A stretch of 20,621 nt of DNA from a virus: positions 1-20,621 of IMG/VR virus record IMGVR_UViG_3300005918_000170; one strand, given 5' to 3'. The notes below the pieces were generated by a model. The model was not told the DNA's origin, did not search any database, and saw only the letters and a list, made by a program, of their open reading frames with translations. This document shows, one piece after another, positions 691 to 14,345 of the stretch (positions within the stretch are counted from its first letter, which is position 1; each line of letters begins with the position of its first letter). The position numbers and the translations under genes were made by a program.

Positions 691-1357
691 GGTATGTGTA
701 CCCGTATTCGTCGATTTCTCGTTGATATCGCACGGCAACCAATTGCCGAAGCGTTGCTGTGTAGTAGTCCTTGTATGCCTTGTGCCGTGACTGGTTTGTT
801 TTATCCAGCCCGCCATGTATGCCAAGCGTATCGGCAACTACTTGCCAATCAGTGGCAAGGTTTTCCATCCGGCCGACAAAATCAAACAGGCGGTTGCCGT
901 CGCGGTCGTAGAGCCAGTCTGTCTGGCGGTTTGCGTAGCTCAGCCCCTCCATTGAATAGCGGCCAACCGGTGGAAGATCTCCAGCACAAACAAGCTCGAT
1001 GAAGTGCTTGAACGATAAGTGCAAGGCAGCCATGCGTTGGTCGGGGCGCCCTTGTGCGAGGTGGTGGTAGACAGAGACGAGCCGGTCCCACGGGTTGCGG
1101 ACAAACGCGAATGTGAATTGTTCGTCGAGCCAGTCCTGTGTAATGGTGCCGTCCTCAACCAGCGTCGGAACGTAGACGTGCTGAAACGTGGTGATAGTTT
1201 TCGCCGGGAAAAACTGCCTGTCCAGGTGAGCTATCCGCTGTGCATGGTGGCCAGAGCGGGGGCATACCAGCCGTTGCCAGATACTTGTGCCGGCCGTGCG
1301 TGGTATCCACAAGAATAGGCCGTGCGGTGGCTTTGCTGCGTGGCTGGCAGACTCCAT
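683..1357 (-). CDS. Sulfotransferase (Sulfotransfer_2-like)
   Basis: A 224-residue protein with both PAPS-binding signatures of sulfotransferases. The 5'-phosphosulfate loop is FLWIPRTAGTSIW (residues 15-27) and the 3'-phosphate element is FAFVRNPWDRLVSVY (83-97). GRMENLATDW (162-171) and the C-terminal YQREIDEYGY are also typical. Enzymes of this family transfer sulfate from PAPS to hydroxyls of carbohydrates. The frame is open to 1564, but the upstream 69 codons overlap the previous gene and look non-coding. ATG 1357 has GGAGG seven bases before it and overlaps the previous stop (TGATG), so it is chosen as the start. Lying between two glycosyltransferase genes, its likely substrate is the glycan they build (inference). 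Phage-borne sulfotransferases are uncommon. Confidence 0.85.
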   Translation of the reverse strand: MESASHAAKPPHGLFLWIPRTAGTSIWQRLVCPRSGHHAQRIAHLDRQFFPAKTITTFQHVYVPTLVEDGTITQDWLDEQFTFAFVRNPWDRLVSVYHHLAQGRPDQRMAALHLSFKHFIELVCAGDLPPVGRYSMEGLSYANRQTDWLYDRDGNRLFDFVGRMENLATDWQVVADTLGIHGGLDKTNQSRHKAYKDYYTATLRQLVAVRYQREIDEYGYTYHE

Positions 1358-2340
1358 CACAGCACCTCCGTTAGAATTTCCTTGAGCCGTGCCGCCATTG
1401 CTGCCGGGTTGTTCGCCCGCTTGGCAACGGCAAAGGCTCGTTCTCGCAGTGGACGCATTTGCAGCCAATCGCGCTTGACTTTCGCAATCAGTTCGTGGGC
1501 ATTCTCCCACATTGGCTTGCACGGTAGGTAGGTTTCGCCGGGCGTGAAAGTATCCTCCGGCCACGTAGCGATATGGCTAACGTCTGATTTGATGAGCACG
1601 GCGCCCGTGAGCATTGCCCCGAAGTCCCGGTAAGCAGTTTCGCCCCAGCCCCACGGCGACAACACTGTCCGACTCTTGCGCATGGTGCCATAATACAGCC
1701 CAATCGGCATAACGCGATTGCGGTGTGCGACGACTTCGCCGCCTTGCCAATTGGCTACGGCTTCAAAGGCGGCAATCCGATGTGCCTGAACTTCTGAACG
1801 GCCGTAGCTTGTCGTGCCGGAGAAGTGCGCGTCATGGATGCGAGGTGCATCTAGCTCCGGGTCGTGGCGCAACACCCCCGTCATTTCCTTATGCGAACCG
1901 AACCCGGCCAGCGGATAAACCTTGGCAAGCTCGGCATCAGTTAGGATGATGTCCGGCTTCCCCTGCGAGGTTGGCCGGACGGCTTTGACGCCATGCTGTT
2001 TGAGAATGTGTACATGATACCGGCCCTGTAATTCGTTGTTGCGCGAGGCCGGCGTGAGACACGAGCGTTTCAGGACAGCTTTGATGGACGGCCACTGAAT
2101 AAACTTGCGGTCGCCAAGTTGCGAGCCGTCGAGGTCATCCGTCATAATCAGGGGCGTCTTGCAGTGGGCAAAATCCGGCGTACATTTGGCCATGGCGACA
2201 TCAATGATAATCGCATCGTAGCCGGTTGCCGCAAGCACTTCGTCTGGGAGCATCTTGCGGGCCTCACCCCCAAGCGCCCTCGTGGCGGCTGCATAGCCCC
2301 AGGTCGCGCCGTCCTTGCGAAAGGCGAAGAGCAACCTCAT
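1357..2340 (-). CDS. GT-B-like glycosyltransferase (Glyco_trans_1_2/CgeB-like C-terminus)
   Basis: A 327-residue protein. Its C-terminal part carries SPWGWGETAYRDFGAMLTG (228-246), followed by VLIKSD, which resembles the nucleotide-sugar-binding end of CgeB/exostosin-like GT-B glycosyltransferases (S.wG.GE..yR.fEal.aG.v.i). The N-terminus, RLLFAF with a small-residue-rich segment, is consistent with the first Rossmann domain. A GTG three codons upstream (2349) is possible, but ATG 2340 has AAGGGG eight bases before it and is preferred. The stop overlaps the sulfotransferase start by one base. Context supports glycan synthesis. Sugar and acceptor are unknown, and the exact family is less certain than for the other two transferases. 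Confidence 0.7.
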   Translation of the reverse strand: MRLLFAFRKDGATWGYAAATRALGGEARKMLPDEVLAATGYDAIIIDVAMAKCTPDFAHCKTPLIMTDDLDGSQLGDRKFIQWPSIKAVLKRSCLTPASRNNELQGRYHVHILKQHGVKAVRPTSQGKPDIILTDAELAKVYPLAGFGSHKEMTGVLRHDPELDAPRIHDAHFSGTTSYGRSEVQAHRIAAFEAVANWQGGEVVAHRNRVMPIGLYYGTMRKSRTVLSPWGWGETAYRDFGAMLTGAVLIKSDVSHIATWPEDTFTPGETYLPCKPMWENAHELIAKVKRDWLQMRPLRERAFAVAKRANNPAAMAARLKEILTEVL

Positions 2341-2342
2341 TG

Positions 2343-2393
2343 TCAGCACCCCTTCTTACAGTGGGCACAACGCGGGATAAGAAAACGAATCAT
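2343..2393 (-). CDS. Possible 16-residue Cys-rich mini-ORF
   Basis: An ATG four bases after the DUF1360 gene stop opens a 16-codon frame, MIRFLIPRCAHCKKGC, that ends two bases before the ATG of the next gene. Its CxxCxxxC spacing could bind a metal, and its tight fit between two genes would suit translational coupling. There is no clear Shine-Dalgarno. It may equally be chance in a 57-base spacer that also holds the ribosome binding site of the next gene. Confidence 0.2.
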   Translation of the reverse strand: MIRFLIPRCAHCKKGC

Positions 2394-2397
2394 GCAG

Positions 2398-2679
2398 CTA
2401 CGCATGGAACACCTCCGCTGAATCGAGAAACCAAAGTAATACTAGCGACACCATTGACGCCAGTGCCACCACCGCGAATACATCCACCGGCAACCACCAT
2501 GACGGCCGGTACAGGAGTATGGCCAGCAGGGCTACCCAGTGGCTCAAGCAATAAGGACATTCTAGCAGGGTTCGCAGAAAACCAAAAGTGCGATTGCGTA
2601 CCGGCTCGAAAATCTTGGCTGTGCTGATTGTGATAGACACCACCGAAACAGCCAGGGCAATACGAAATAACTCTAGCAT
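2398..2679 (-). CDS. Small membrane protein, DUF1360-like
   Basis: A 93-residue, very hydrophobic protein with likely membrane segments at about 5-22, 46-58 and 65-86. The motif CPYCLSHWVAL (41-51) is the hallmark of DUF1360, a small membrane family often encoded by phages. Its biochemical role is unknown. The frame extends to 2715, but ATG 2679, inside the end of the upstream transferase gene and preceded by GGGGGA, is the natural start; the two genes overlap by 7 bases. Being enclosed in the cassette, it might anchor the transferases at the membrane or act on a lipid-linked intermediate, but this is inference from position only. Confidence 0.75.
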   Translation of the reverse strand: MLELFRIALAVSVVSITISTAKIFEPVRNRTFGFLRTLLECPYCLSHWVALLAILLYRPSWWLPVDVFAVVALASMVSLVLLWFLDSAEVFHA

Positions 2680-3722
2680 TGCAGTCCCCCCAGCATCTTC
2701 TCCCAGTGCGGCCAAATCTTGGCTGGGTTGGCCAATTCGTCGGCCACGTATGCCCGTGCCCGCTTGGTTATTTTCAGCCGCAGCGTCTCGTCATACCCGA
2801 GCATCGCCGCATAGAAAGCTAGGTCGGCCGGCTCATCGGCGGAGAGATAGCCCGTCTCACCATGCCGAATCATCTCGCGCCAGCCCCACTGATTCTGCGC
2901 AACTATTGGCACACCGGACGCCATGGCCTCCAGCCCGGCGCGGGGCCAGTTCTCGCCAGCCCCGCCGTTGACTTGCAGCAGGCAATGGAGCGAACCCAGG
3001 AATTTCTGCGAGGGCTCGGCGCAGGACGCCAGGCATTCAGCAAAGGCTGGCGGCGTACCGACCTTGTTTTTCACAGCGTCCGACCACGCCATGACGCGCG
3101 CCTTCATTTTGCCGTTGTGCCAACGATGAATCAGCTTGAGGATTGGCCACGTATTCGATGAGTACTTATCTCCCGCCGCACGACTCAAGCGGCCTACGCA
3201 ATACATATCGTTGGGTGTACGCGGCCGGGGATTGTACGGGAACTCATCCACGGAGAATGCACCGCGTATCAAGTGCCCTTGGTCCGGCTTGTAGCCGAGG
3301 GGTGTCAACTTCTCCTCGATTTGCTTGCGCTGCCAATCGGACTGAAACACGTAAGCCTCGAAGGTCTTGTTGTATTTCTTACAGTGTGCGATTTCCGGGC
3401 CGTAACAAAACGTCATGCAGTTCACCCACACTATCGGGCAGCCCATGTCGCGGAATCGGTGAGCTTGTGCAATGAAATTGCTGTTGCACATCGAGATAAC
3501 AACAGCGCCCTTGAGGTCTGGCACCGTTTCGATTTCATCCCAGTTTGCAAGATGGACCTTGCAGCCGATACCCTCTAGCTTTTCTCGCCAGGTCAGATCG
3601 GCACCGCCCATGGGAATGAATGTGAGGTCGACGCCGTTTGCTCGCAGCATCTTCGCCGTGTGCCAGCACTCCGTATTTGCCCCGCCTGAGTTGCCGGGAA
3701 ACCCACTCCAAAAAACCTTCAT
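2673..3722 (-). CDS. Glycosyltransferase, GT4-like (GT-B fold)
   Basis: A 349-residue protein of normal length for GT4. The N-terminal domain begins MKVFWSGFPGNSGGANTECW, with the glycine-rich acceptor loop of GT-B enzymes. A domain boundary near 170 leads into VGRLSRAAGDKYS. The C-terminal domain has ENWPRAGLEAMASGVPIV (257-274), containing the EX7E pair Glu257/Glu265 that contacts the donor sugar nucleotide in retaining GT4 enzymes, then GETGYL. The start ATG has AAGGGG nine bases upstream. It begins 15 bases after the Ser-rich appendage gene stop, so both are probably co-transcribed. No signal peptide is seen, so it should act in the cytoplasm. Sugar specificity cannot be read from sequence. 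Confidence 0.87.
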   Translation of the reverse strand: MKVFWSGFPGNSGGANTECWHTAKMLRANGVDLTFIPMGGADLTWREKLEGIGCKVHLANWDEIETVPDLKGAVVISMCNSNFIAQAHRFRDMGCPIVWVNCMTFCYGPEIAHCKKYNKTFEAYVFQSDWQRKQIEEKLTPLGYKPDQGHLIRGAFSVDEFPYNPRPRTPNDMYCVGRLSRAAGDKYSSNTWPILKLIHRWHNGKMKARVMAWSDAVKNKVGTPPAFAECLASCAEPSQKFLGSLHCLLQVNGGAGENWPRAGLEAMASGVPIVAQNQWGWREMIRHGETGYLSADEPADLAFYAAMLGYDETLRLKITKRARAYVADELANPAKIWPHWEKMLGGLQC

Positions 3723-3737
3723 TTTCTTACCCCTTAG

Positions 3738-5507
3738 TTAGCTGGTTACATTAACGGTTGCTCCGGTCCAATCGCAGCTTGGATCGGAATCAGAATCGTA
3801 AGTAGGCGCACCTATGGCCGTGCAATCTATCGTGCTGCCAGCCTGACTGCCTCCGAATTCCACGGCTTCCGCATTACCCACGAAGTCGACGAATAGGCCG
3901 TAGTAAACAGTCCCGGCCGCCTCTGATACCTCTACCCATATGCGGGTGGCATTGCATGGCAGGTCGGTTGTTTTCTCCCACACGCAGTTGCCGATGTAGT
4001 CCAGTTCCCAGGCTGCATTCCACGCCGTGCAATCCTCGCATTCCGTACCAGAGGAACTGGCCGCCGGGTTCTGTGCCACGCCGGCAATCGTTGCGATGAT
4101 TACGGCTGGTGTCGATTCGACACAGACAACACATTCGCCGGAAGAGGAGCTGCTGGATGATGCCTCGCCGCTGCTGGAGGAACTGCTGGACGAAGACGAA
4201 GACGGTTCGCCACTGCTGGACGATGATGGGCATTGCCCCTCGCTGATAACTACGGTCGGGGTTTGGTCCGGGCAGTAGCCATTGAAGATGTTGTATAGGT
4301 CGTAGGCACCCAGCGGCGGGCAGTCTGGATAGTCGCAAGCGGATATTGGGCGACTCAGCCAACGCGACGGATTACTCACGGCATCCGGGAAATAGTCCAT
4401 ATCGACTTGCATGTACCATGCACAGCCCTCGCCGGACGAACCGCTGCCAGAGCCACTATCGCCGCACTCACACCAAATCATTATGCAGATATTGGCGCAG
4501 AAACCTTCTTCCCAATCATGGGGCACGCAACGAGTCCAATGGCAACTGCCCGGGAATCGCGTTAGATTGATTATCTGATTCGCACACTCGCAGTCGCCAG
4601 TCATGCCGGTGATGGTCGCACACAGCACCTCAGAGCAATCCTCGGCACAGTCAGCGGCATCCGGGCACTCGCACTCACCGCTTGACGAAGACGACGAACT
4701 GGTGACACAAACGCACTGACACTTGATTTCCACTTGCCCGTAATACTGGCCTTCCACTTCCGGCTTGTCGTATCGGTCGGCGCCGATGTCGGATTTATCC
4801 TCCAGATACCACCACATGCCGGGCGGGTTCGGCGAGACGTAAGACTCGGGGCACTCGCCAGAAGACGATGACGACGAGGATGATGGCGTACACTCAGGCG
4901 GCGTACAAGGGCACCACACCCACCAGGCGCAGCCACCGCAGCATTCTTCGCCGGATGATGCCTCCTCGCCACTACTGGAGCCACTAGGGCTACTGGAGCC
5001 ACTAGAGCTACTGGAGCCACTAGAGCTACTGGAGCCACTACTACTGCTTGAGCTGCTCTCGTCGCAACGCTTCTCGGGATGGCCTAGCACCTCCATCCGG
5101 CCGCTTTGTCTATTGAAGGTGACCCAAACACGGTCGCCCTCGACGTAGCCGGCCACCATATCGGGGTCAAGCTCGGCCGTCGGGAAGTACAGGTCGTCCA
5201 TCGTTCCCGGCTCGGCAATATAGCTGTCAGCGCCGATATCGTAAAACACCGCAGCAGCATCCGGGGACATCGGCACGGCAGAGCCACCAGCCGACGAAGA
5301 CACCACGCAGCCCATGTCCTCAGTGAGTTCGTACAGCCAAACGATTGTGGGGATGGGCAGCATCACCGATTCGCCGGGCGTAGAAACCTCGGTCCCGGCA
5401 TGGGGCGCCACGTCGGTTTCCAACCTGCTGTTCATGCCCTCGATCAGCTTATTCTGCTGCGATGCAAAGGGCGGGTCGCGTTTTTTTACTGGGGTTACCC
5501 GTGTCAT
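3738..5507 (-). CDS. Large Ser/Cys-rich virion appendage (fibre-like) protein
   Basis: A 589-residue protein, unrecognised as a whole. Residues 1-148 form an ordinary, mostly globular N-terminus. From 149 on, Cys-rich modules alternate with serine tracts at about 151-180, 209-216, 269-276, 427-432, 436-446 and 450-456, many ending in GE or GEC. Two modules look related: ATITG...DCEC...GSCHW...IMIWCE (about 297-347) and ATIAG...CEDC...GNCVW...IWVEVSE (about 471-527), suggesting a duplicated disulfide-bearing beta domain. The start overlaps the previous stop as ATGA. As the last structural gene after the tape measure and a distal tail gene, it is likely a tail tip, fibre or surface appendage (inference). 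The serine linkers resemble substrates for O-glycosylation, and the glycosyltransferase cassette follows directly. An extended hydrophilic linker role without sugars is the alternative. Confidence 0.75.
   Translation of the reverse strand: MTRVTPVKKRDPPFASQQNKLIEGMNSRLETDVAPHAGTEVSTPGESVMLPIPTIVWLYELTEDMGCVVSSSAGGSAVPMSPDAAAVFYDIGADSYIAEPGTMDDLYFPTAELDPDMVAGYVEGDRVWVTFNRQSGRMEVLGHPEKRCDESSSSSSSGSSSSSGSSSSSGSSSPSGSSSGEEASSGEECCGGCAWWVWCPCTPPECTPSSSSSSSSGECPESYVSPNPPGMWWYLEDKSDIGADRYDKPEVEGQYYGQVEIKCQCVCVTSSSSSSSGECECPDAADCAEDCSEVLCATITGMTGDCECANQIINLTRFPGSCHWTRCVPHDWEEGFCANICIMIWCECGDSGSGSGSSGEGCAWYMQVDMDYFPDAVSNPSRWLSRPISACDYPDCPPLGAYDLYNIFNGYCPDQTPTVVISEGQCPSSSSSGEPSSSSSSSSSSSGEASSSSSSSGECVVCVESTPAVIIATIAGVAQNPAASSSGTECEDCTAWNAAWELDYIGNCVWEKTTDLPCNATRIWVEVSEAAGTVYYGLFVDFVGNAEAVEFGGSQAGSTIDCTAIGAPTYDSDSDPSCDWTGATVNVTS
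4972..5043 (-). repeat. Four 18-bp tandem repeats coding for Ser/Gly
   Basis: Four consecutive 18-bp units begin at 4972, 4990, 5008 and 5026. The two middle units are identical (plus strand ctactggagccactagag) and the outer ones differ by a few bases. Each encodes a Gly-Ser hexapeptide of the GSSSSS kind, using mainly AGY serine codons. The exact unit length of six codons keeps frame, so copy number can vary by slippage without breaking the gene. Confidence 0.9.
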
Positions 5508-6349
5508 GGCGGCACGATGTAGAAGTTAAGCAACGGGGCAAAGGCGATGCTCGGGTACAGCAATTGGCCGGCGACCATAATCGGGAACCAGCCTCTTGCT
5601 CCAGCCGGCACTGTTCGGTATTCGTAATTCCAGCCGCCTACGAGATTGCCGGCACCGTCCCAAATGGCCAGCTCCCGGAATAGATACTCCAGTCGCCAGG
5701 TCGGGGTGAGCACATTCAGTTCGCTGTCGACAACGTATTCAACCTCCAACGATGGCGACTCAAATAGGAGCGTGTGAACTTGAGCCCCCAGGAATATGGC
5801 GTTGTTGAGGTGTCCGATGGACCTCCGTATCGTGACCCATGGCGGCTGTCGGCAAGCGTGCCACGTCAAGCGATGCTCGATGATTGGGTGCCGCTTGACG
5901 ATGGTTCTGTCGTGTTCCTGCGCTGGATCGGCTGCCCCCCATTCCAATGCACGCGAGGGGAAGACGTAGTTTTTCATTGACGTATCGACACGGTACGTGA
6001 GAAACCCGCCGTCCGGCTCGATGTCGGGGTAGCTGTTCAGGAATTCATACGTTGCCGTGACGAGTGCGTAGTTCCGGTAGCCCTGCAAATCCGTCTCGTG
6101 ATTGTCCAGCACTTGCGGCAAGATGTCGTCATGGAAGCGTTGCATCCGAACGCGAACAGCGTAGACGCCGTCATGCTTGGGATACTGCGACGGCCCCTCT
6201 CCACCGAACAGGAATTTATTGCCGAGGAACTCCGTCTTGAATAGGCGCCGCTCATCCCACGGACAGATAAACCGGCGAACCATCGTGATGCCATCAGAGC
6301 TATAATCCTCGTCCGGCGATCCATCGAGCTCTTGAAATGCTACAGCCAT
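5504..6349 (-). CDS. Distal tail / minor tail protein, family not recognised
   Basis: A 281-residue protein rich in aromatic residues and predicted beta strands, without signal peptide or membrane segment. I do not recognise the family. ATG 6349 overlaps the tape measure stop as TAATG and is preceded by a GGGGTGGG stretch; a GTG three codons upstream is less likely. Its stop overlaps the appendage gene (ATGA). In siphophage gene order, the slot right after the tape measure is normally the distal tail (Dit) or baseplate hub protein, so a tail-tip role is inferred from position and length, not from a motif. Confidence 0.6.
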   Translation of the reverse strand: MAVAFQELDGSPDEDYSSDGITMVRRFICPWDERRLFKTEFLGNKFLFGGEGPSQYPKHDGVYAVRVRMQRFHDDILPQVLDNHETDLQGYRNYALVTATYEFLNSYPDIEPDGGFLTYRVDTSMKNYVFPSRALEWGAADPAQEHDRTIVKRHPIIEHRLTWHACRQPPWVTIRRSIGHLNNAIFLGAQVHTLLFESPSLEVEYVVDSELNVLTPTWRLEYLFRELAIWDGAGNLVGGWNYEYRTVPAGARGWFPIMVAGQLLYPSIAFAPLLNFYIVPP

Positions 6350-8268
6350 TAGACCCACCCCGGAGCTAACTTTTTGATATCGTCACCGAGTTCCTTTATC
6401 GCGTCGACCTGCTCCTGGCGTTTCACTTGTGCCTCCCGGTGTATTTTCTCTGCGTTCTGTTTGACCTCCGACTCGCGGCGAAGGTTCTGAAAGACATCAC
6501 GGAGGCCAGCACTGCCCGTCGTTATCATTCCGCCCAGGCGTTCGCCGCCACCCCTGCCGGCCCTTGCTCCAATGCCCGCCGCACCCCCGGCTATTCGTCC
6601 ACCGGCTCCAATGCGACCACCGATTGACTTACCGAGTTGTGCAATCATCCCGCCAATGGCCCCAGCTACACCGCCTTCGCTGCCAACGATATCGGCGATT
6701 CCGCCAACAGCACCGCCAGCCGCACTGATCCCGCGTGCTGCTGCCATCGCCCGGCGTTTCTCCGCGTCCGCTGCTGCCTTCTCCCGGCCCTCTTTGATCT
6801 GCTGTTGTGCCTCGGAGATTGCACCCAGCGAGGGCAGACCGGCCGCTCTTGCCGCCTTCGATATTCGCTCGCGTTCTTTATCCGCCTCTACCATTGCTTC
6901 ACTTGCGGCCTCCTGCTTCTTGGCTTCCGCTGTGATGCGTCTCTGTAGTGCGAGGGCATCGCGTGCCCTATTGCGTGCTACCGCGTGTTGGGTTTCGGCA
7001 TTTTGGAGTGCTTTATCTGTCTTGTCCTTCTCGATTGATCGAAGCACCCCTGCGGGAACTGCTGACCCCATGGGCCCTACGCGACTTCGGCTTACGGCCG
7101 CGTCTGCTTTTGCTGATGCTGCCCGCGCCCGCTTTAGTTTCAATTCTGCCTGTGTCAGCCCCTTCTGGGACGCCTCCACTTCCCGCCTTGCTCCCTCGGT
7201 ATCCGCTTCCCCCGCAATCAGTTTGTTCTGCAAGTCCCCTTGCGGCTCTCCTTTGATACGGCCCATCTCCAGTTTATCAACAGCATCTTTCAGCCCGGTT
7301 AGTGCCTTGATGTCTTCATAGACCACCTGGCCGAACGTCTTGCCTGTTGCTTGGGCTTTTGCAAACTCAATAGCGATGATTGATAGGCCGCCGCCCACTA
7401 CGCCGAGTTTGGCAACCAGCGCGATTATTGCCGCTATCTTTACACTCCATATCGCCCACTCGGCAACGTTCTCTTTCTGTTCAACTGTCATGTTTTGGAG
7501 TGCGCTTGTCATGCGGATAATAGTCTGAAGAGCACTGGCCATCTTGGGCTGTAACGCTGTACCAAACTCCTCAGCCAAGTCGCCCACGTCGTTTTTCATT
7601 TGCTTGAGCTTGCCTATGAAGGTCTTCGCCTCCGCTTCGGCAGCCCCGCCAAATTGCATCCGCAATTCCTTGAGTATCTCCGATTGTGCCCCCGCCATAT
7701 CGCCCACGGCCGCCATTGATTTGATGACTTCAATCTGCGTTTCCGAGAATGTCACGCCGGCACGACTCAAAAACGTGAGGCCACGGATGGGATCATTGAG
7801 GGCCTTGCTGATGAGAATGACGGAGCTTTTCAAGTCCTGCTTCAACACGGTTGACATATCTTGAGCGGCGCGGATGGCAGCGGGAAACGTCTGTTGTCCG
7901 ATGTTGCGGAATGTGGCCTGTACGGCCATGGCGGAAATAGTAGCCTCGTCGCCGAAGGTGGTTACCTTCTGTAGTCCAGCCGCCATCGCCTTCAATTCGT
8001 CCGCCGTGAATCCCGCTGCATGGCCCGTGGCCTTCAGGACGGCCTCAAGCCTTGCCTCGGCTTGTGCCTGTTCGCCGGACAACTTTATCAGCGCCGCCAG
8101 TGCCCCACCAGCAACAAACAGAAAGCGTGTCGCATATCGGCCGGCGGTCTGCAAGTGTACCTTGAGCTGCCTCAGTCGCCTGCTTACACGATCCAAGCCA
8201 CGATTGAACTTGTTGTCACGCAGGTTCAATTCGGCATATGCTGCCGCTAATTCAAACTGTCCGGCCAT
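6349..8268 (-). CDS. Tape measure protein
   Basis: A 639-residue protein with the composition of tail tape measure proteins: Ala-, Lys- and Gln-rich helical sequence throughout. Hydrophobic stretches lie at about 48-64 and 271-302, with a long charged coiled-coil-like part at 340-510 and a Gly/Ala-rich segment at 515-585. The early ALNDPIRGLTFLSRAGVTFS (156-175) is typical of phage tail length proteins. It sets tail length, is chaperoned by the G/GT proteins encoded just upstream, and leaves the tube at DNA ejection. By the usual rule of about 0.15 nm per residue, the tail would be near 95 nm. The start has TGAGG at good spacing and overlaps the end of the frameshifted chaperone by 17 bases, the lambda-like arrangement. 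Confidence 0.9.
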   Translation of the reverse strand: MAGQFELAAAYAELNLRDNKFNRGLDRVSRRLRQLKVHLQTAGRYATRFLFVAGGALAALIKLSGEQAQAEARLEAVLKATGHAAGFTADELKAMAAGLQKVTTFGDEATISAMAVQATFRNIGQQTFPAAIRAAQDMSTVLKQDLKSSVILISKALNDPIRGLTFLSRAGVTFSETQIEVIKSMAAVGDMAGAQSEILKELRMQFGGAAEAEAKTFIGKLKQMKNDVGDLAEEFGTALQPKMASALQTIIRMTSALQNMTVEQKENVAEWAIWSVKIAAIIALVAKLGVVGGGLSIIAIEFAKAQATGKTFGQVVYEDIKALTGLKDAVDKLEMGRIKGEPQGDLQNKLIAGEADTEGARREVEASQKGLTQAELKLKRARAASAKADAAVSRSRVGPMGSAVPAGVLRSIEKDKTDKALQNAETQHAVARNRARDALALQRRITAEAKKQEAASEAMVEADKERERISKAARAAGLPSLGAISEAQQQIKEGREKAAADAEKRRAMAAARGISAAGGAVGGIADIVGSEGGVAGAIGGMIAQLGKSIGGRIGAGGRIAGGAAGIGARAGRGGGERLGGMITTGSAGLRDVFQNLRRESEVKQNAEKIHREAQVKRQEQVDAIKELGDDIKKLAPGWV

Positions 8269-9033
8269 CGAGTTGCCTCATGTGCCACTGAATCCACTCG
8301 CGCTTTTGCGCTTTCCGGTCTTCCATGCGTCCCTGATGTTCCGAAAGCGTCATGCTGCTCTTCTGCGGTGCGGTTATCAGTGAATGTGCCTGCGCGATTG
8401 TCATTCCACTAATGGTGTCGTATGTGTAACGGTATCGCTTTGCGAGGGGGCGGAACCATTGACGCTCCCAATTGATGGGTCGGTCGATGTTGTCCCCAGC
8501 GTCTTCGCCGGGGACGGTAGGTTTCCCACCGGTAATCCCATCAACTCCGTAATGATCTGGCCAAATACGCCATCCTCAGAACTGGCAACCACTGCCGCAA
8601 TCTGCTCAGGCGTTGCGTCGGCCATCGTCTTTTGCATCTCGACAACGATCAGGGCCAGCGTCTCCTCGGCCTTCTTCTCGATCAGTGTCGCCGCCTCGAC
8701 TTCCGTGATATCGGGATGATGCTTTCTGAGTGACAGCCACGTCGCCAATACGTAGCCCTCTCGGGAATTCGTGAAGTCGTCAAACTCCTTCGGCGTCACC
8801 TGCTGGATTCGCGTGCTGTCATCGTATGCCTTGGCAAGAATGTCCTTGCGTTCCGATGGGTCGCAAATCTTTAGCAGGCACGAGGCGACCTCCGTTGGGT
8901 CGCCTCGCTTTGACAGAATCCGTTTGGTAATGGCGGCATGGTCGGCGAACGTGAGTTTGCCTAGCGTGTACGTTTCGCCGTCCAGTTCCCAGGTTTCCGC
9001 ACCTGCGACGAGAGCATCAAGAGATGCGTTCAT
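8252..9033 (-). CDS. Tail assembly chaperone, -1 frameshift form (gpGT-like)
   Basis: The heptamer GGGAAAC stands in the zero frame as G GGA AAC near codon 171 of the chaperone. Slipping back one base leads into a frame that stays open for 89 codons and stops at 8252, giving a fusion of about 260 residues. The added part reads as genuine protein: NWERQWFRPLAKRYRYTYD, then ISGMTIAQAHSLITA, then a charged helix. Tail-assembly T domains often show a similar aromatic/basic stretch followed by a Met-Thr motif. The extension ends 17 bases inside the tape measure gene, just as gpGT does in lambda-type phages. An ATG at 8404 in this frame could alternatively start a separate 50-residue protein. Confidence 0.72.
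8401..9033 (-). CDS. Tail assembly chaperone, short form (gpG-like)
   Basis: A 210-residue acidic, mainly helical protein beginning MNASLDALVAGAETWELDGE, with YTLGKLTFADHAAITKR soon after. Tail chaperone proteins of this type sit between the tube and tape measure genes and coat the tape measure before tube polymerisation. No enzymatic motif is seen. The start is preceded by AAAGGGG. The last 39 residues, after the slippery site at 8521-8527, are low-complexity and Ser/Thr/Pro-rich, as expected for a short tail read in the unshifted frame. Assignment rests on position, length and the frameshift signal rather than on strong sequence similarity. Confidence 0.75.
   Translation of the reverse strand: MNASLDALVAGAETWELDGETYTLGKLTFADHAAITKRILSKRGDPTEVASCLLKICDPSERKDILAKAYDDSTRIQQVTPKEFDDFTNSREGYVLATWLSLRKHHPDITEVEAATLIEKKAEETLALIVVEMQKTMADATPEQIAAVVASSEDGVFGQIITELMGLPVGNLPSPAKTLGTTSTDPSIGSVNGSAPSQSDTVTHTTPLVE
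8521..8527 (-). promoter_or_regulatory. Programmed -1 ribosomal frameshift site GGGAAAC
   Basis: On the minus strand the bases are GGGAAAC, phased X XXY YYZ with the chaperone frame (GTG GGA AAC). This is a canonical -1 slippery heptamer, one base from lambda's GGGAAAG. The -1 frame has a stop at about 8580 upstream and is then open to 8252, so slippage here fuses the chaperone to the downstream extension. Confidence 0.75.
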
Positions 9034-9051
9034 ATCAAGCCCCTTTATTGG

Positions 9052-9477
9052 TTAGCAACCACTCGAAGAACTACCAGAGCCAAGGCAGGTATCATCGAGC
9101 AGTCCGAACAGAACAGGCGCGAGACGGCCTACCCATGTGACGGTGTATTCAATCGGCGCTCCATCGTCGATATCCACCGGGACGCGGATCTCGCTGATCC
9201 TCACGCAACCGTGGATATAATTGAGGAGAGCCGGGCCGATATGGAAGTCGGCCGGATAGGACGCTCCCGCCTGGACGATGAGGCAGCCTGCGTCATCCGC
9301 TCGCAGAAGGAACGTCCCGGACCACCGCTGCGTGCCGGAGAGATTTTCTTTCCACCCGGCGGTCGCGTTGGAGCCGTACTCCTTGAGGTTTCCCTCGATA
9401 CTTGCTTCCCAGTTGCCAACGGGCGCGAGCACACGGCCCCCGACGTACAATGTTCCCCATTTACCTGACATTTCCAT
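9052..9477 (-). CDS. Probable major tail tube protein
   Basis: A 141-residue beta-rich protein beginning MEMSGKWGTLYVGGRVLAPV. The run EYGSNATAGWKENLSGTQRW, followed by SGTFLL, resembles the strand pattern of tail tube proteins (Y.S..T.GW....G...WSG.F), and the gene lies directly before the tail chaperone, the usual place. The start has AAGGAG seven bases upstream. The C-terminus ends in GSGSSSSGC, one of the serine tracts shared by virion proteins here; in a tube such a tail could face outward. The neighbouring 9496-10053 product is the other candidate for the tube. Confidence 0.6.
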   Translation of the reverse strand: MEMSGKWGTLYVGGRVLAPVGNWEASIEGNLKEYGSNATAGWKENLSGTQRWSGTFLLRADDAGCLIVQAGASYPADFHIGPALLNYIHGCVRISEIRVPVDIDDGAPIEYTVTWVGRLAPVLFGLLDDTCLGSGSSSSGC

Positions 9478-9495
9478 AGTATGTCTCCTTGTTTG

Positions 9496-10053
9496 TTAGG
9501 CACCGCTTGAGCTGCTACTACCGGCAACGGGTCGAGCGATCCCAATAATTGCGATTGAATACGTAACGTCGGCCACCTCGGCAGCAATTCGCAACATTCT
9601 GTTGCCGTTGCTCTCACCGGACGATGACGACGAACTGCCCTCGGAACTGACTATCCAGCCCTGCTGGCGATTGGTGAGCAGTAGCGTAGAGTTGGCTGGT
9701 ATCTCCACCTGATGGCTTGCAGCGCGGAACGGTTCCCACCAGCAGTCGTAGTCGGCGTTGCCCATGACGAGATCGCCGGCCGCCGCATTTTCGTTGACGA
9801 TATGGATGGCTTTGATCCACTCGAAATCGACGGTTATGGTGTCTTCCAAAACCTTGCGAGTCATGGCCGTCAAATTGAAAACGTCGGAGGTGCCGTTGAC
9901 TAGGACTCGGTTTTCGGAATGCCAATTGCGATTGGCCTGTGCGATGCCCTGCCCGTCTGCCAGGCTGTTGGCATAGGACAGCTTAGAGTTGTCGACGACA
10001 CTGTCCGTCCAGTTCCAACTCAGCACCGATTCGATTTGTGTCTTTATGCTCAT
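9496..10053 (-). CDS. Tail structural protein with two serine tracts
   Basis: A 185-residue protein. The frame extends to 10110, but the extra codons only overlap the upstream gene; ATG 10053, two bases after that gene's stop and starting MSIKTQIESV, is the real start. The middle part, FEWIKAIHIVNENAAAGDLV followed by IPANSTLLLTNRQQGWIV, looks like a beta-sandwich virion protein. Serine tracts occur at EGSSSSSSGESNG (about 9605-9645) and at the very C-terminus, GSSSSSGA. It lies between tail terminator and tube genes, so it is part of the tail or tail surface. No family name can be given with certainty. Confidence 0.6.
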   Translation of the reverse strand: MSIKTQIESVLSWNWTDSVVDNSKLSYANSLADGQGIAQANRNWHSENRVLVNGTSDVFNLTAMTRKVLEDTITVDFEWIKAIHIVNENAAAGDLVMGNADYDCWWEPFRAASHQVEIPANSTLLLTNRQQGWIVSSEGSSSSSSGESNGNRMLRIAAEVADVTYSIAIIGIARPVAGSSSSSGA

Positions 10054-10055
10054 GG

Positions 10056-10460
10056 TTACCTGCCAGCCACAACGGCTACCTTGGCCTCGAAGTCGATAAC
10101 GAAACGCCAAACGCCGTCCGGCTCCTGTAGTTCAAAATCATTCGTCCGCTGCATGTCGATTACGCCATCGGGCGCAGTCAGCAAAAACGCAACCCGGTCG
10201 AAGGCAATTTTCATTTGGTGGATGATGGCCGCGCCGTCTGCGTTGGATTGGTGAAACAATTGGAATCTGATACTCACGGTGTCCACGGTCTGCGCGTTGT
10301 TGGATCGGATCAGTGGTGAATCGCCGTCCTTATTGACGGCACAGAACGGCAATTCATAGTCCGCGAATTCCAGCCCGGTTTTCAGTCGGCTGGAATCGAG
10401 CAGCGTATTCAGCGCTACCGTTGCCGCCCATCGCGTGTGAATCTGCGCCATGATGTCCAT
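10056..10460 (-). CDS. Tail terminator / tail completion protein (DUF3168-like)
   Basis: A 134-residue protein starting two bases after the gp10-like gene. An N-terminal helix is followed by a beta-rich half ending RTNDFELQEPDGVWRFVIDF, a pattern seen in tail terminator proteins that cap the tube at the neck. Its place after the gp10-like gene and before the tail proteins is the canonical one. ATG 10460 is used; a Met three codons further in is also possible. Confidence comes mainly from gene order and size. Confidence 0.62.
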   Translation of the reverse strand: MDIMAQIHTRWAATVALNTLLDSSRLKTGLEFADYELPFCAVNKDGDSPLIRSNNAQTVDTVSIRFQLFHQSNADGAAIIHQMKIAFDRVAFLLTAPDGVIDMQRTNDFELQEPDGVWRFVIDFEAKVAVVAGR

Positions 10461-10462
10461 GG

Positions 10463-10930
10463 TTATCTGCCCCCCAGTGCGTGCCGCTTGGCTGCGTCCC
10501 TTACGATCATCTGCAATCGCGTAAGGTTGTCGCGTAGTGCCGGGATAATCGTTGGCCGTCGCTGCTTGCCGGAGCGATACCGAATCCCAAGCTCGTGATA
10601 GATCATGTATCTCGCGTTCGCCGTATAGCCGACGCGGGATGCTGGTTTTGCTGGCAGGTAGTTCATCACGATATTTTTTTGGCCGAATCCCGTCCGTCGT
10701 CGAGGTGACTCCCCTTGCCGTGACGAACTGGGATAGACGGTATACTGCGAGCCCTTGGGACCGCGCGAGGTGCTGCGTGTTCGTTGCTTCGGACGGCCGG
10801 CATTCGGGATGCTCGCCTTCTGCCGTGCGATACGCTGCAACTCCAAGCCGGCCGCCTGGAGCCCTTTGCCCATGGCGGCTTTCGTGAATCGCGAGAATTC
10901 AGCGCCTCGCCATCTCAAGCTAGTGGCCAT
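10463..10930 (-). CDS. HK97 gp10-like neck / head-tail joining protein
   Basis: A 155-residue basic protein. The C-terminal half ANARYMIYHELGIRYRSG followed by RRPTIIPAL matches the HK97 gp10-like family signature (YA.y.E.G......p.RP...PAL). The N-terminal helix GKGLQAAGLELQRIARQKAS is also usual. An internal Arg/Ser-rich segment (about 50-80, RTRSTSRGPKGSQYTVYPSS) appears to be an insertion compared with common members. These proteins act in the neck or tail completion. The gene overlaps the upstream one by 16 bases. Confidence 0.72.
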   Translation of the reverse strand: MATSLRWRGAEFSRFTKAAMGKGLQAAGLELQRIARQKASIPNAGRPKQRTRSTSRGPKGSQYTVYPSSSRQGESPRRRTGFGQKNIVMNYLPAKPASRVGYTANARYMIYHELGIRYRSGKQRRPTIIPALRDNLTRLQMIVRDAAKRHALGGR

Positions 10931-11568
10931 GGTGTCACCTCCGCTTCAATGGTCGCCAGTTCGCCAATCCGTTCCGCGCCGCTGTAGCCGGTAACCTTGT
11001 AGACCGTATCGTCGGCACCTCGAATTCTGTCGGTCGTGTTGATGTCCACGTCGCCGGCAACGAAGACGCTTACGCTCTGCACTCGCCGCTTGGCCTCATG
11101 CTCAACTGCCAGGTCGGTCGTCATCGGTTGGATTCGCGCCCGGACCACCTTGAAGATATGCCACGTTGGCTCGTCGGCCCCAGTGGTGCCCTTCGTGTAC
11201 GTCGCCCGCTCGATGGTGACCGTATCGTCCAGGCCGTAGACTACAGCCACGTTGCGGCATATCAGTCGCCACCGATGCTCCAGGGTGCTGTCCTGTCGGT
11301 CCAGGATCGTGTACCGGTTGCCGTTGGCGTCCACGATCTCGTCACCCATCGCCGGTTCATCGACAACCTCGATGTCGGGGAAGTGCCAGCGAACATCACC
11401 TTGCTGGTATTTGCCGTCCGATGCTTCAATCTCCGCGTAGGTAATGGCACGCTGCAAGGCATGGTCAATCGAGGTATTAGGCGTAGACCCACGTCGATCC
11501 AGCGTCACAGCCTCCAGGCCGTCAACGACATCCTCAAAATCGGTGGATGGGCTGAATAGCGACGCCAT
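10915..11568 (-). CDS. Head-tail connector (head closure/stopper-like) protein
   Basis: A 217-residue protein. Segments GDEIVDANGNRYTILDRQD (about 75-93) and TTDRIRGADDTVYKVTGYSG (about 177-196) have the 'GD.I.d..G..Y.V' pattern of beta-barrel head closure (stopper) proteins, and their occurrence twice suggests an internal duplication or a two-barrel arrangement. Stop and start with the upstream 71-residue gene overlap by one base. Position between a gpW-like gene and the gp10-like gene supports a neck role. The family call is tentative. Confidence 0.5.
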   Translation of the reverse strand: MASLFSPSTDFEDVVDGLEAVTLDRRGSTPNTSIDHALQRAITYAEIEASDGKYQQGDVRWHFPDIEVVDEPAMGDEIVDANGNRYTILDRQDSTLEHRWRLICRNVAVVYGLDDTVTIERATYTKGTTGADEPTWHIFKVVRARIQPMTTDLAVEHEAKRRVQSVSVFVAGDVDINTTDRIRGADDTVYKVTGYSGAERIGELATIEAEVTPWPLA

Positions 11569-11783
11569 TAGGTGAACCCCTGGTGGTGAATTTCGTAGGG
11601 GGTGCCAGCGTTAATCAGCTCATCAATGTCTGCCAGCTTTTTTGTCAGGATGTCGAAGTATTCGCCCCATAGCACGTTCTGCCCGTCAAGGTCGTATGTC
11701 GGCTTGGGGCTCGCCGTAATCTCCACCAGGACGGCGAGGATCTGGCTCTTGATCGTTGCGAGTTGTTCGGCGTCTGTAGCCAT
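11568..11783 (-). CDS. Small head-tail joining protein (gpW-like position)
   Basis: A 71-residue, two-helix protein: MATDAEQLATIKSQILAVLV, then YDLDGQNVLWGEYFDILTKK, then a C-terminal PYEIHHQGFT. Short phage proteins with an N-terminal helix, a central D/NGQ.v.W.eY motif and an E.H.QG.T end are common in siphophage head-tail joining regions. The start ATG is preceded by GGAG in the tail of the small ORF before it. Exact function unproven. Confidence 0.62.
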   Translation of the reverse strand: MATDAEQLATIKSQILAVLVEITASPKPTYDLDGQNVLWGEYFDILTKKLADIDELINAGTPYEIHHQGFT

Positions 11784-11785
11784 GG

Positions 11786-11932
11786 CTAGTGCTCCAGCCA
11801 GTTCAGTTCAATGTCAAAGACGTTGGCGTCCGCTTGCGATGTCAGGTGCAACAGGTAGGCCGTATTGACGGCCAGTACCCAATGCCCCGCGGCAATCGAC
11901 CTGCCAGCTACTAAGCACCTTTCGGATAGCAT
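11786..11932 (-). CDS. Possible small ORF (48 residues)
   Basis: Starts ATG directly after an in-frame TAG and ends two bases before the next gene. The C-terminal half, VNTAYLLHLTSQADANVFDI, reads like a natural beta-strand-rich protein and fits snugly against the following gene. It has no Shine-Dalgarno and overlaps the frame at 11814-11969. It may be the second part of one gene split by a frameshift, since the better start lies in the other frame. Confidence 0.35.
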   Translation of the reverse strand: MLSERCLVAGRSIAAGHWVLAVNTAYLLHLTSQADANVFDIELNWLEH

Positions 11933-11969
11933 CTAATTGGGTGAATTCTGATTTAGGCTCACTGCTCAT
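11814..11969 (-). CDS. Possible small ORF (51 residues)
   Basis: ATG 11969 follows the previous gene stop by 10 bases with AGGTG upstream, the best start in this 196-base interval. The protein begins MSSEPKSEFTQLDAIRKVLS, a plausible helix, but the second half is less protein-like. It overlaps the 48-residue ORF in another frame. It could be an independent small gene or the 5' part of a frameshifted gene. Confidence 0.35.
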   Translation of the reverse strand: MSSEPKSEFTQLDAIRKVLSSWQVDCRGALGTGRQYGLPVAPDIASGRQRL

Positions 11970-11979
11970 GGCGCACCTG

Positions 11980-12411
11980 TCAAATGCAATTCAGTTGAAA
12001 CCGGATATAAAGCTCATCCGCCCCAACGGTGATAAGCCGGTACTCGACGAGGTATCGACGGCCGGCAATCGAAAACGCCTCGTCGTCGCAAGTGTCAATC
12101 GTGTGCTTGAAGTTGTAGCCGGTGGTGTCTTTCGTCCACATGCAATCCGTTTGCAATGCGTTGTAAATAATGTCGGTAATCGTCAACGATACGTTGTTGT
12201 GGCCGTCTACTGCCGTGCGGTTGTCTGAATCCTGATCGTCAAGCAGGTAGACGGTATAGGTTGCGGTCACGCCGCACTCGCCAGAAGACGAGCCGCCTGG
12301 GGCGAAGTCGGCTTGCGTGACAGCCACGCAATCGGCACCGATGACTCGGGCCAATAGCGTAGCCGTACCGTTTTTGAAAACGCTGCCGTGTTCATCCCGA
12401 GCGTTCGCCAT
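11980..12411 (-). CDS. Virion-associated protein with GSSSGEC tract, family unknown
   Basis: A 143-residue beta-rich protein, not recognised. It contains PGGSSSGECG at about residues 38-47, the same serine motif found in the capsid and tail proteins, followed by TATYTVYLLDDQDSDNRTAV and a C-terminal RRYLVEYRLI. Start ATG has GAGG upstream. It follows the major capsid gene in the slot of head-tail joining or capsid accessory proteins, so it is probably in the virion; the motif supports this but no function can be assigned. Confidence 0.6.
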   Translation of the reverse strand: MANARDEHGSVFKNGTATLLARVIGADCVAVTQADFAPGGSSSGECGVTATYTVYLLDDQDSDNRTAVDGHNNVSLTITDIIYNALQTDCMWTKDTTGYNFKHTIDTCDDEAFSIAGRRYLVEYRLITVGADELYIRFQLNCI

Positions 12412-12432
12412 GGTGTCCTCTTATCCAGAGCC

Positions 12433-12480
12433 GGAGAAGGTGCCCAGGCGGCGGGGCAACTACCACCCAGGCACCTCTCC
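12433..12480 (-). terminator. Stem-loop after the major capsid gene
   Basis: On the minus strand GGAGAGGTGCC (12480-12470) pairs with GGCACCTTCTCC (12444-12433) with one bulge, and the inner part can add GC pairs. It starts just after the capsid stop codon. No U-run follows, so it is more likely an RNA-processing or 3'-stabilising hairpin, or a weak terminator, that sets capsid mRNA above downstream mRNA. Confidence 0.45.
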
Positions 12481-12492
12481 AGTTCGCTCCAG

Positions 12493-13785
12493 CTAGTGCT
12501 CCGCGTTCGCGTTGATAGCGGGCCAGGCGTCCGGCTCGCAGATGGTTTCGCCGCTCGAACTGTGCCCACAGCTACCGGACGAGATTACCATGTAATGCGG
12601 TCGCTTCACCCAACAGCCGCCGCGTTCCGATGCCTTGAACCTGACAACGATGTCCTGCTCAAATTCCACCGTCGAATTGATCGGCTCCTGTGTCACGGTT
12701 ACCGGCCAGTTCTCGCGGTAGACAAACGCCTTTTTGGGATTGCCCAGCAACCAGACATCGGCCGGATCGCCGAAATCGTTGGTCGCAACCAGCAACTGAT
12801 ACGCCCGGCGGCTCTTCTCCGCGAGGGTGTAGCCAGCCAGCGGATTTCCGCCGATGGTGTTGGAAATCCCGCCACGCGGTCCGGCGTCGACGTCCCCGTG
12901 CCATACGGTCGTGGCGCCGAGAATGCGACGGGCAGTAGCCCATTGCGGCGGCATCACGATAAGCGTCTGGCCGCCGATCTCGATGGACTCCCCGTTGTCC
13001 GGATCGGTCATATCGTCAAACCAGCGTTCGGCGTAATCGATGTCGGTCCAATCCCGCAAGGGGCGGTCATGGATGTTCGCGGGTGCCATCGTGTTGCCGC
13101 CAACTTGCTGATTCGTCGCGTTGTACGTGTTATACGCCGCGCCGTTGTAGTTGAAGTTGTTGGCAATGCCCAAGATGACATTCCAGATGCGCTTGTCCTT
13201 GTTGACCCCGAGCCATTCACCCACGCGGCCTGCCTGGCGCAACATTTCGCCCGACTGCCCGGTGAAGAACAGGGCCTCCTTGGTAAGCCCGACGATCATG
13301 CCGCGCTTGTGGTTGTCGGAGAAGTCTTGGTACTTCTCGCCGATTTCCTGCGCCGGATACGGCATCCCCTCGTGGACGATTTCCCCTTGGTCACCAATCG
13401 ACGTGATGCCCGGTCGCCGTTCGTGGCGTAGCATCACATTGGTTTCCAGGTCGACCAGCGAAGCAGCGATGGCCGATTCCATTAGGAAGGCGTCCATCAC
13501 CTGCTTTGAAATCACCCGTCCGGTGATATTCAGAAACGCGGTGCTGTCCACACCGTCCGCCGCTTCGAGGATTCTCGTTGCGTGGTCGTTCCCGGCTGCG
13601 TTGGGATTGCACGCCTGGCGGAACTCGTGACCGAAAAACGCTTCGGCCAACTCGCAGAAGTCGACATCGGCGGGACGCAACGGCGCGTCCTTGTCTTCCA
13701 TCGCTTCCGCAATGTGCTTGGCCATTCCGGCCGGACCCATTGTCCGGCTAAGTTGTACCAAGTCTCTGTACTTGATTGCTCTCAT
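12493..13785 (-). CDS. Major capsid protein (HK97 fold)
   Basis: A 430-residue protein in the major capsid slot after protease-scaffold and decoration genes. SLVDLETNVMLRHERRPGIT and KRGMIVGLTKEALFFTGQSG match the N-arm and spine of HK97-type capsid proteins, and EQDIVVRFKASERGGCWVKR with PHYMV is the typical C-terminal end. Unusually, 25-30 residues follow the fold: ISSGSCGHSSSGETICEPD and a short tail, adding a serine/cysteine tract to the most abundant virion protein. The N-terminal about 90 residues may be a delta domain or be removed by the protease; no cleavage site is evident. Start ATG 13785 is preceded by an AAAGGACAGCGACC stretch. Confidence 0.85.
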   Translation of the reverse strand: MRAIKYRDLVQLSRTMGPAGMAKHIAEAMEDKDAPLRPADVDFCELAEAFFGHEFRQACNPNAAGNDHATRILEAADGVDSTAFLNITGRVISKQVMDAFLMESAIAASLVDLETNVMLRHERRPGITSIGDQGEIVHEGMPYPAQEIGEKYQDFSDNHKRGMIVGLTKEALFFTGQSGEMLRQAGRVGEWLGVNKDKRIWNVILGIANNFNYNGAAYNTYNATNQQVGGNTMAPANIHDRPLRDWTDIDYAERWFDDMTDPDNGESIEIGGQTLIVMPPQWATARRILGATTVWHGDVDAGPRGGISNTIGGNPLAGYTLAEKSRRAYQLLVATNDFGDPADVWLLGNPKKAFVYRENWPVTVTQEPINSTVEFEQDIVVRFKASERGGCWVKRPHYMVISSGSCGHSSSGETICEPDAWPAINANAEH

Positions 13786-13805
13786 GGTCGCTGTCCTTTC
13801 TCGGG

Positions 13806-14345
13806 CTATTCGCCGGAACTCGACGAGCCAGAGCAGGTGTCGCCCTCATACCCGGCTTCCATAAGCTCGGATGTGATTCTTACGTACACCGTCGTGGCGG
13901 CCACGTTGACTTGTTTTTGAACGATACCGATGGATCGTTGGTCTATCTCGGCATCGCCGAGGGGAACCTCGATTACGGTCTGGTTCAACAATGCGTTCCC
14001 TGCCGCATTCTCCGCAACGCCAACGCGGTCGGCGATATCAAAGAGTGCCGACGCACAGTCAAATTCAAACGTGCCCTTGGTGGCAACGCGAATCGACGTA
14101 ACGTCGAGGGGATCGTGACTCGGCCTATGCTGTTGCATGGCCACGCCGAGGAACTTGCACTTAAACCATTTTTGGTTAATTGCAATCGTCCCTTGGTCGT
14201 TTACTTCCGACGCCGGCAGGGTGTAAAGCCCAGCAGCATCTCGTTCGCCGTACACCAGGTCACCGATTTCGATGGTGTGTACGTTGCGGACAAAAGCGAC
14301 CACCGGGTAGGTGTCGCCGTACCGCCATAGCATCCTATTTGCCAT
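13806..14345 (-). CDS. Putative capsid decoration / accessory protein
   Basis: A 179-residue beta-rich protein between the protease-scaffold and major capsid genes, the usual slot for decoration (cement) proteins. It begins MANRMLWRYGDTYPVVAFVR and has VGVAENAAGNALLNQTVIEV in the middle. It ends in DTCSGSSSSGE, another of the shared serine tracts. Start is well supported by AAGGAGG upstream. Decoration is inferred from position and size; I recognise no family motif. Confidence 0.55.
   Translation of the reverse strand: MANRMLWRYGDTYPVVAFVRNVHTIEIGDLVYGERDAAGLYTLPASEVNDQGTIAINQKWFKCKFLGVAMQQHRPSHDPLDVTSIRVATKGTFEFDCASALFDIADRVGVAENAAGNALLNQTVIEVPLGDAEIDQRSIGIVQKQVNVAATTVYVRITSELMEAGYEGDTCSGSSSSGE

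What the first reader, a model, noticed from the sequence alone, without database searches (positions are those of the whole stretch)
3738..14345. A shared Ser-Gly-Glu(-Cys) tract in at least six virion proteins
The major capsid protein, putative decoration protein, the 11980-12411 protein, both tail proteins (9052-9477, 9496-10053) and the large appendage all carry SSS(S)G, often SSSSGE and often beside a cysteine. The tracts sit at C-termini or in apparent loops. They are encoded partly by TCN and partly by AGY codons, which cannot be converted by a single base change, so spread of one DNA repeat is a poor explanation and selection at protein level is likely. I know of no described phage in which capsid, neck, tail and fibre all bear the same serine tag. 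Candidate roles are common sites for O-linked modification, an exposed linker, or a recognition tag for one partner.
Basis: partly seen in the sequence, partly recalled or inferred. Interest (0 to 1): 0.78.

Follow-up and report, generated by a model that had tools for sequence, protein, structure and literature searches.

The report
Serine-tagged, probably sugar-coated phage particle
In a family of viruses that infect planctomycete bacteria, several unrelated particle proteins have each acquired the same kind of short serine/glycine tag, and the genomes with tags usually carry sugar-attaching enzymes beside the particle genes, so the tags are most likely anchor points for a sugar coat on the virus.

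Summary
Six virion proteins of the window carry SSS(+)G tracts: five plus the Ser-rich appendage; composition shuffles give 0.09 such proteins instead of 5. The rate in planctomycete ORFs is 1/288. Portal relatives (about 160 loci, nearly all Planctomycetota) let me test it. Every tract in the five non-appendage proteins is an insertion or C-terminal extension absent from most homologues. In other genomes of the clade different sets of virion proteins carry such tails, in a style shared within a genome, while others have none. Ser codons differ where the residues agree. AlphaFold puts the MCP tract in a disordered tail of an HK97-fold protein. Directly downstream the window encodes a GT4 glycosyltransferase, a second transferase and a sulfotransferase. 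The same GT4 family occurs in 15 genomes, 14 with tails (the 15th borderline), and in none of 47 others without tails; other cassettes add GT2, GT25/PLOD-type GTs and methyltransferases. Best reading: the tags are acceptor sites for phage-encoded virion glycosylation, as in mycobacteriophages Che8/Corndog but in an unrelated lineage. Glycans were not observed, and the tail-GT link is partly phylogenetic.

The parts
13806..14345 (-). decoration-like protein (upstream of MCP); tract CSGSSSSGE at 13809-13835, C-terminal
   Evidence: homologues in 87 genomes, tail is an extension; L004 homologue is 45% identical yet ends in the same CSGSSSSGE with different Ser codons
12493..13785 (-). major capsid protein, HK97 fold; tract HSSSGE at about 12547-12564 in a C-terminal extension
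   Evidence: residues 408-430 pLDDT under 50; Foldseek PDB E 9e-9 to HK97-fold capsids
11980..12411 (-). virion protein of unknown position; SSSGEC at 12274-12291 inside an 11-residue insertion absent from all 16 aligned homologues
9496..10053 (-). jelly-roll virion protein; internal SSSSSSGE 9613-9636 (12-residue insertion) and C-terminal SSSSSGA 9499-9519
   Evidence: (loop pLDDT about 59); PHROG 22694
9052..9477 (-). probable tail tube protein; C-terminal GSGSSSSGC, SSSSGC at 9055-9072
   Evidence: identity inferred from place before chaperone-like 8401-9033 and tape measure
3738..5507 (-). Ser-rich appendage/fibre, 11 SSS+ tracts (main blocks 4968-5057, 4854-4883, 4674-4700, 4134-4226, 4047-4058)
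   Evidence: fibres at the same place in L110, L115 and L069 are also Ser-rich
2673..3722 (-). GT4-type glycosyltransferase (GGANTExWHT family), 15 nt after the appendage gene
   Evidence: Pfam Glycos_transf_1 3.9e-9; EX7E residues E257 and E265 invariant in A3; PDB relatives are GT-B/GT4 enzymes
1357..2349 (-). second putative glycosyltransferase
   Evidence: 37% identical to L168:14582-15619, which has a weak Glyco_trans_1_2/RXYLT1_C match and lies in the corresponding cassette
683..1357 (-). sulfotransferase (listed ORF 683-1564; ATG at 1357 overlaps the stop of the gene before it)
   Evidence: Pfam Sulfotransfer_2 1.5e-10, PHROG 3347 Gal-3-O-sulfotransferase 3.7e-19; PAPS-type motifs IPRTAGTS and VRNPWDRLVSVYHH read from the sequence
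2398..2715 (-). small DUF1360 membrane-type protein inside the cassette, role unknown
   Evidence: Pfam DUF1360 3.2e-4, score 21.1 against cut-off 21

Best explanation
The tracts are flexible, solvent-exposed Ser/Gly acceptor tags on the particle surface. During late expression the phage's own glycosyltransferase cassette, encoded right after the appendage gene, attaches glycans to their Ser hydroxyls (first step probably by the conserved GT4, inferred); further enzymes extend and cap the glycan, in this phage with sulfate, in relatives with methyl groups or other sugars. The result would be one shared, phage-specific sugar coat on capsid, decoration, jelly-roll, tail and fibre proteins. Shown: the tags, their status as insertions or extensions, disorder in the two models made, genome-wise clustering, and the adjacent conserved GT cassette. 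Inferred: that the GTs act on the tags, the order of steps, and the purpose (shielding, receptor binding, or adhesion in biofilm or mucus).
For: Tags are insertions or extensions in several unrelated folds and disordered in the MCP and jelly-roll models. The same genome puts tails on different proteins in one style: L115 deco SSSSSSG, MCP GSSSSS, jelly roll ESSSSS, fibre 13 blocks; L069 deco, MCP, connector NSSSSGS, 5504-6358 homologue CCSSSSSSGS, fibre. The GT4 family (A3) gives E under 1e-100 in 8 of 50 planctomycete genomes with such prophages and nothing else under 1e-20; tail+GT+/tail-GT+/tail+GT-/tail-GT- = 7/1/6/24, Fisher 9e-4; viral records 7/0/11/23, 1.4e-3. With at least 2.5 kb in hand beyond the 5504-6358 homologue: 10 of 10 tailed have the GT, 0 of 5 untailed. 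A tailed element without the GT4 (L129) has an unrelated GT25 in the same slot. Cassettes differ: methyltransferases and PLOD-type GT, GT2/GT92, GT2-GT4 fusion, sulfotransferase. Precedent: capsid and tail-tube C-termini glycosylated in mycobacteriophages by GTs encoded beside an O-methyltransferase.
Against: No glycan was observed. On the portal tree one clade of 30 without tails or GT carries much of the association; independent contrasts agree (about 2:0) but are too few for significance. Rumen elements L158/L162/L164 have Ser tails and no GT4; for L158 no GT was seen just downstream. Records were partly fetched because they held the GT. Some GT-positive phages have only short SGSG tails, and no strict sequon is shared. 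The GT could instead act on host surface or DNA. The sulfotransferase was found in the window only.
Confidence: 0.62

Rival explanations
1. The tags are plain flexible Ser/Gly linkers or solubility tails, tolerated or favoured at exposed termini and loops with no modification; the neighbouring GTs do something else.
For: Tails vary in sequence and length, occur at termini and loops, and some tailed elements (L158) show no GT nearby.
Against: Independent acquisition by several virion proteins in the same genomes, near absence from host ORFs, and GT co-occurrence including a non-homologous GT25 in the same slot.
Confidence: 0.2
2. The GT/sulfotransferase genes are morons that alter host surface polysaccharide (superinfection exclusion or serotype conversion), and the tags are unrelated to them.
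For: Phage GTs with that role are well known (general knowledge); NCBIfam best partial matches of the GT4 are exopolysaccharide GTs.
Against: GTs lie co-directional and tightly spaced at the end of the structural operon, follow the tags across genomes, and no GT of this family was found outside genomes with such phage-like elements; all but one of the untailed genomes lack it.
Confidence: 0.1
3. The tags are a docking motif for one common partner (a cross-linking or coat protein, or a host lectin), perhaps using the flanking cysteines for disulfides, without sugar.
For: Cys within 6 residues of 4 of 6 tracts in the window; CSGSSSSGE identical in the distant homologue L004.
Against: Cys and Glu are not kept in most relatives, where tails are SGSGA, SPSGV or SSSSS, so no sequence-specific motif is conserved.
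Confidence: 0.06

Closest known systems
Virion glycosylation of mycobacteriophages (Che8 cluster F1, cluster O phages such as Corndog; Freeman et al. 2023)
   Same: Capsid and tail subunit C-termini are the modified sites; phage-encoded GT genes, in cluster O beside an O-methyltransferase; in Che8 both proteins end in -GS.
   Different: Unrelated phage lineage and host phylum; longer poly-Ser tags, also as internal insertions and on decoration, jelly-roll and fibre proteins; sulfotransferase; the window GT4 has no tblastn match in 50,697 phage records, mycobacteriophages included; glycan unproven here.
Ser-rich repeat linkers of phage fibres and bacterial adhesins
   Same: Poly-Ser low-complexity stretches in an elongated surface appendage (general knowledge).
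   Different: Here short tags are also on capsid, decoration and other virion proteins of the same particle.
Eukaryotic glycosaminoglycan attachment (Ser-Gly with acidic neighbours, sulfotransferases)
   Same: Ser-Gly next to Glu, with a sulfotransferase encoded nearby; a resemblance recalled, not tested.
   Different: No GAG polymerase or xylosyltransferase identified; most relatives lack the acidic residue.

Membership tests
Phage virion glycosylation system (mycobacteriophage type) | Phage-encoded glycosyltransferase genes | tested here: met
   Window 2673-3722 (Pfam 3.9e-9), same family in 14 further genomes
Phage virion glycosylation system (mycobacteriophage type) | Shared Ser/Gly acceptor segment on both capsid and tail proteins | tested here: met
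   Extensions or insertions in deco, MCP, jelly roll, probable tube and others; that they are acceptors is inferred
Phage virion glycosylation system (mycobacteriophage type) | Glycans on the virion proteins shown by mass | not testable with these tools
   Needs virions or expressed protein
Phage virion glycosylation system (mycobacteriophage type) | GT homologous to the known mycobacteriophage GTs | tested here: inconclusive
   No tblastn hit of the window GT4 in the phage collection, which holds Che8; general GT-B kinship is not excluded
GT4-type glycosyltransferase | C-terminal Glycos_transf_1 domain with EX7E residues | tested here: met
   Pfam over cut-off, E257 and E265 invariant, GT4 structures by profile
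HK97-fold major capsid protein | HK97 fold | tested here: met
   Foldseek to HK97 and many phage capsids, E 9e-9, prob 1.00; model mean pLDDT 75.8
PAPS sulfotransferase (Sulfotransfer_2) | Family profile over curated cut-off | tested here: met
   42.1 bits against 22

The most novel reading that the evidence does not exclude
A phage-encoded, proteoglycan-like coat: planctomycete phages build a sulfated (or methylated) glycan on Ser-Gly tags spread over nearly all surface proteins of the particle, with fast exchange of decorating enzymes and independent gain of tags by unrelated folds.
Probability: 0.2. Interest if true: 0.85.

Novelty: new variant of a known kind. Interest (0 to 1): 0.62.

Why it matters
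If true, it extends virion glycosylation from a few actinobacteriophages to a widespread lineage of planctomycete phages and prophages, shows convergent evolution of acceptor tags on unrelated capsid, decoration, jelly-roll and tail proteins, and gives a genomic signature (Ser/Gly tails plus a GT cassette after the fibre gene) for predicting glycosylated phages. It would also supply portable short acceptor tags and matching transferases.

Tried and rejected
DNA repeat spread: rejected by codon mix and different codons in homologues. Host-wide habit of Ser tracts: rejected, 1/288 ORFs (simple ORF calls, partial genomes). Strict SSSSGE-Cys motif: not conserved in relatives. Sulfotransferase as general partner: PF03567 rang in 0 of 50 relatives, but also in no control genome, and phmmer with the window protein found none in the loci. 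INPHARED protein searches with MCP, portal, jelly roll, appendage and GT gave nothing. Rank correlation of Ser counts between MCP and decoration tails was weak (rho 0.25), since different genomes tag different proteins. Independent-pair test on the tree: too few pairs. Jelly-roll model against PDB: best Z 7.8, below the trust level, no specific homologue.

Full report
What is there. All virion genes of the window are on the minus strand. Translation confirms SSS+G tracts in MCP, decoration-like protein, 11980-12411, 9496-10053 (two tracts), 9052-9477 and, many times, the appendage 3738-5507; portal, MuF, protease, tape measure, connectors and the enzymes have none. Shuffling each protein gives 0.09 non-appendage proteins with SSSG against 5 observed; planctomycete ORFs give 1 of 288 for SSSG and 0 for SSSSG. 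A near-identical contig adds a seventh protein upstream of the terminase.

Relatives. A portal alignment found 80 viral and 80 genomic loci, nearly all Planctomycetota, mostly Pirellulales and Thermoguttaceae, so the host is most likely a planctomycete (inference). Homologues show that every tract in the five non-appendage proteins is an add-on: an 11-residue insertion in 11980-12411, a 12-residue insertion and a C-terminal extension in 9496-10053, and C-terminal extensions in 9052-9477, MCP and decoration protein. The decoration protein of L004 is 45% identical and ends in the identical CSGSSSSGE, with all four tract Ser codons different.

Clustering by genome. Tails occur on 24 of 87 decoration proteins, 8 of 82 MCPs and 19 of 37 jelly-roll proteins, against 5 of 152 portals, 1 of 94 proteases and 0 of 38 and 0 of 70 for two small connector-type families. 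Within a genome they share a style: L110 and L115 have poly-Ser on decoration, MCP, jelly roll and fibre; L020, L023 and L026 have Ser/Gly tails such as SPSGV, GSGSGA and GSSSGA; L069 also tags its connector and 5504-6358 homologues. Other genomes have none. Per-protein correlations are weak because different genomes tag different proteins.

The enzyme cassette. Fifteen nucleotides after the appendage the window encodes a GT4-type glycosyltransferase, then a small DUF1360 protein, a second putative GT and a sulfotransferase whose ATG overlaps the stop of the gene before it. The same GT4 family, with an N-terminal GGANTExWHT motif, lies just after the 5504-6358 homologue and fibre in relatives. 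It occurs in 8 of 50 planctomycete genomes at E under 1e-100, with nothing else under 1e-20, and in 6 of 50 viral records. Tailed versus untailed against GT presence gives Fisher p 9e-4 and 1.4e-3; among records with enough DNA downstream, 10 of 10 tailed have it and 0 of 5 untailed (with ascertainment bias). Neighbouring enzymes vary: methyltransferases with a PLOD-type GT in L168, GT2/GT92-type in L174, a GT2-GT4 fusion in L188. L129, tailed but without GT4, has a GT25 in the slot.

Structure. The MCP model has the HK97 fold with residues 408-430, which hold the tract, disordered. The 9496-10053 model (pLDDT 90.8) is a jelly roll with the internal tract in a low-confidence loop; matches include phage cement and turret proteins but at Z under 8. 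Placement on the outer surface is an inference.

Reading. Exposed Ser/Gly add-ons on several unrelated folds of one particle, selected as protein, travelling with adjacent sugar-transferring and sugar-capping enzymes, fit virion glycosylation. The precedent is in mycobacteriophages, where capsid and tail-tube C-termini bear glycans (PMC12619734) and cluster O phages carry three GTs beside an O-methyltransferase (PMC11600133); in Che8 both proteins end in -GS. Weak points: no chemistry, phylogenetic confounding, and tailed rumen elements without a GT nearby.

Noticed in passing
L110/L188 and L115/L193: Two Thermoguttaceae genomes have the phage GT next to the same three host-type genes, so the element sits at one conserved chromosomal site in two species: possibly an old, domesticated or GTA-like element.
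   Followed up: no
L189, L190, L194, L195, L197; also L219, L222-L224: Structural clusters run straight from the jelly-roll gene to the 5504-6358 homologue without a tape measure gene; in rumen Thermoguttaceae the cluster ends there and host genes follow: podovirus-like or GTA-like elements.
   Followed up: partly
L005:3324-4652: LamG-like protein with long SSSSSAPES repeats and SSSSGE upstream of the terminase of a nearly identical virus.
   Followed up: partly
window 16136-17782: MuF-type protein with a weak C-terminal Prok-JAB match (E 0.0055, below cut-off).
   Followed up: no
L188:6356-8131 and L191:3553-5856: The phage GT4 is fused to a GT2 domain in L188 and extended at its N-terminus in L191.
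   Followed up: partly
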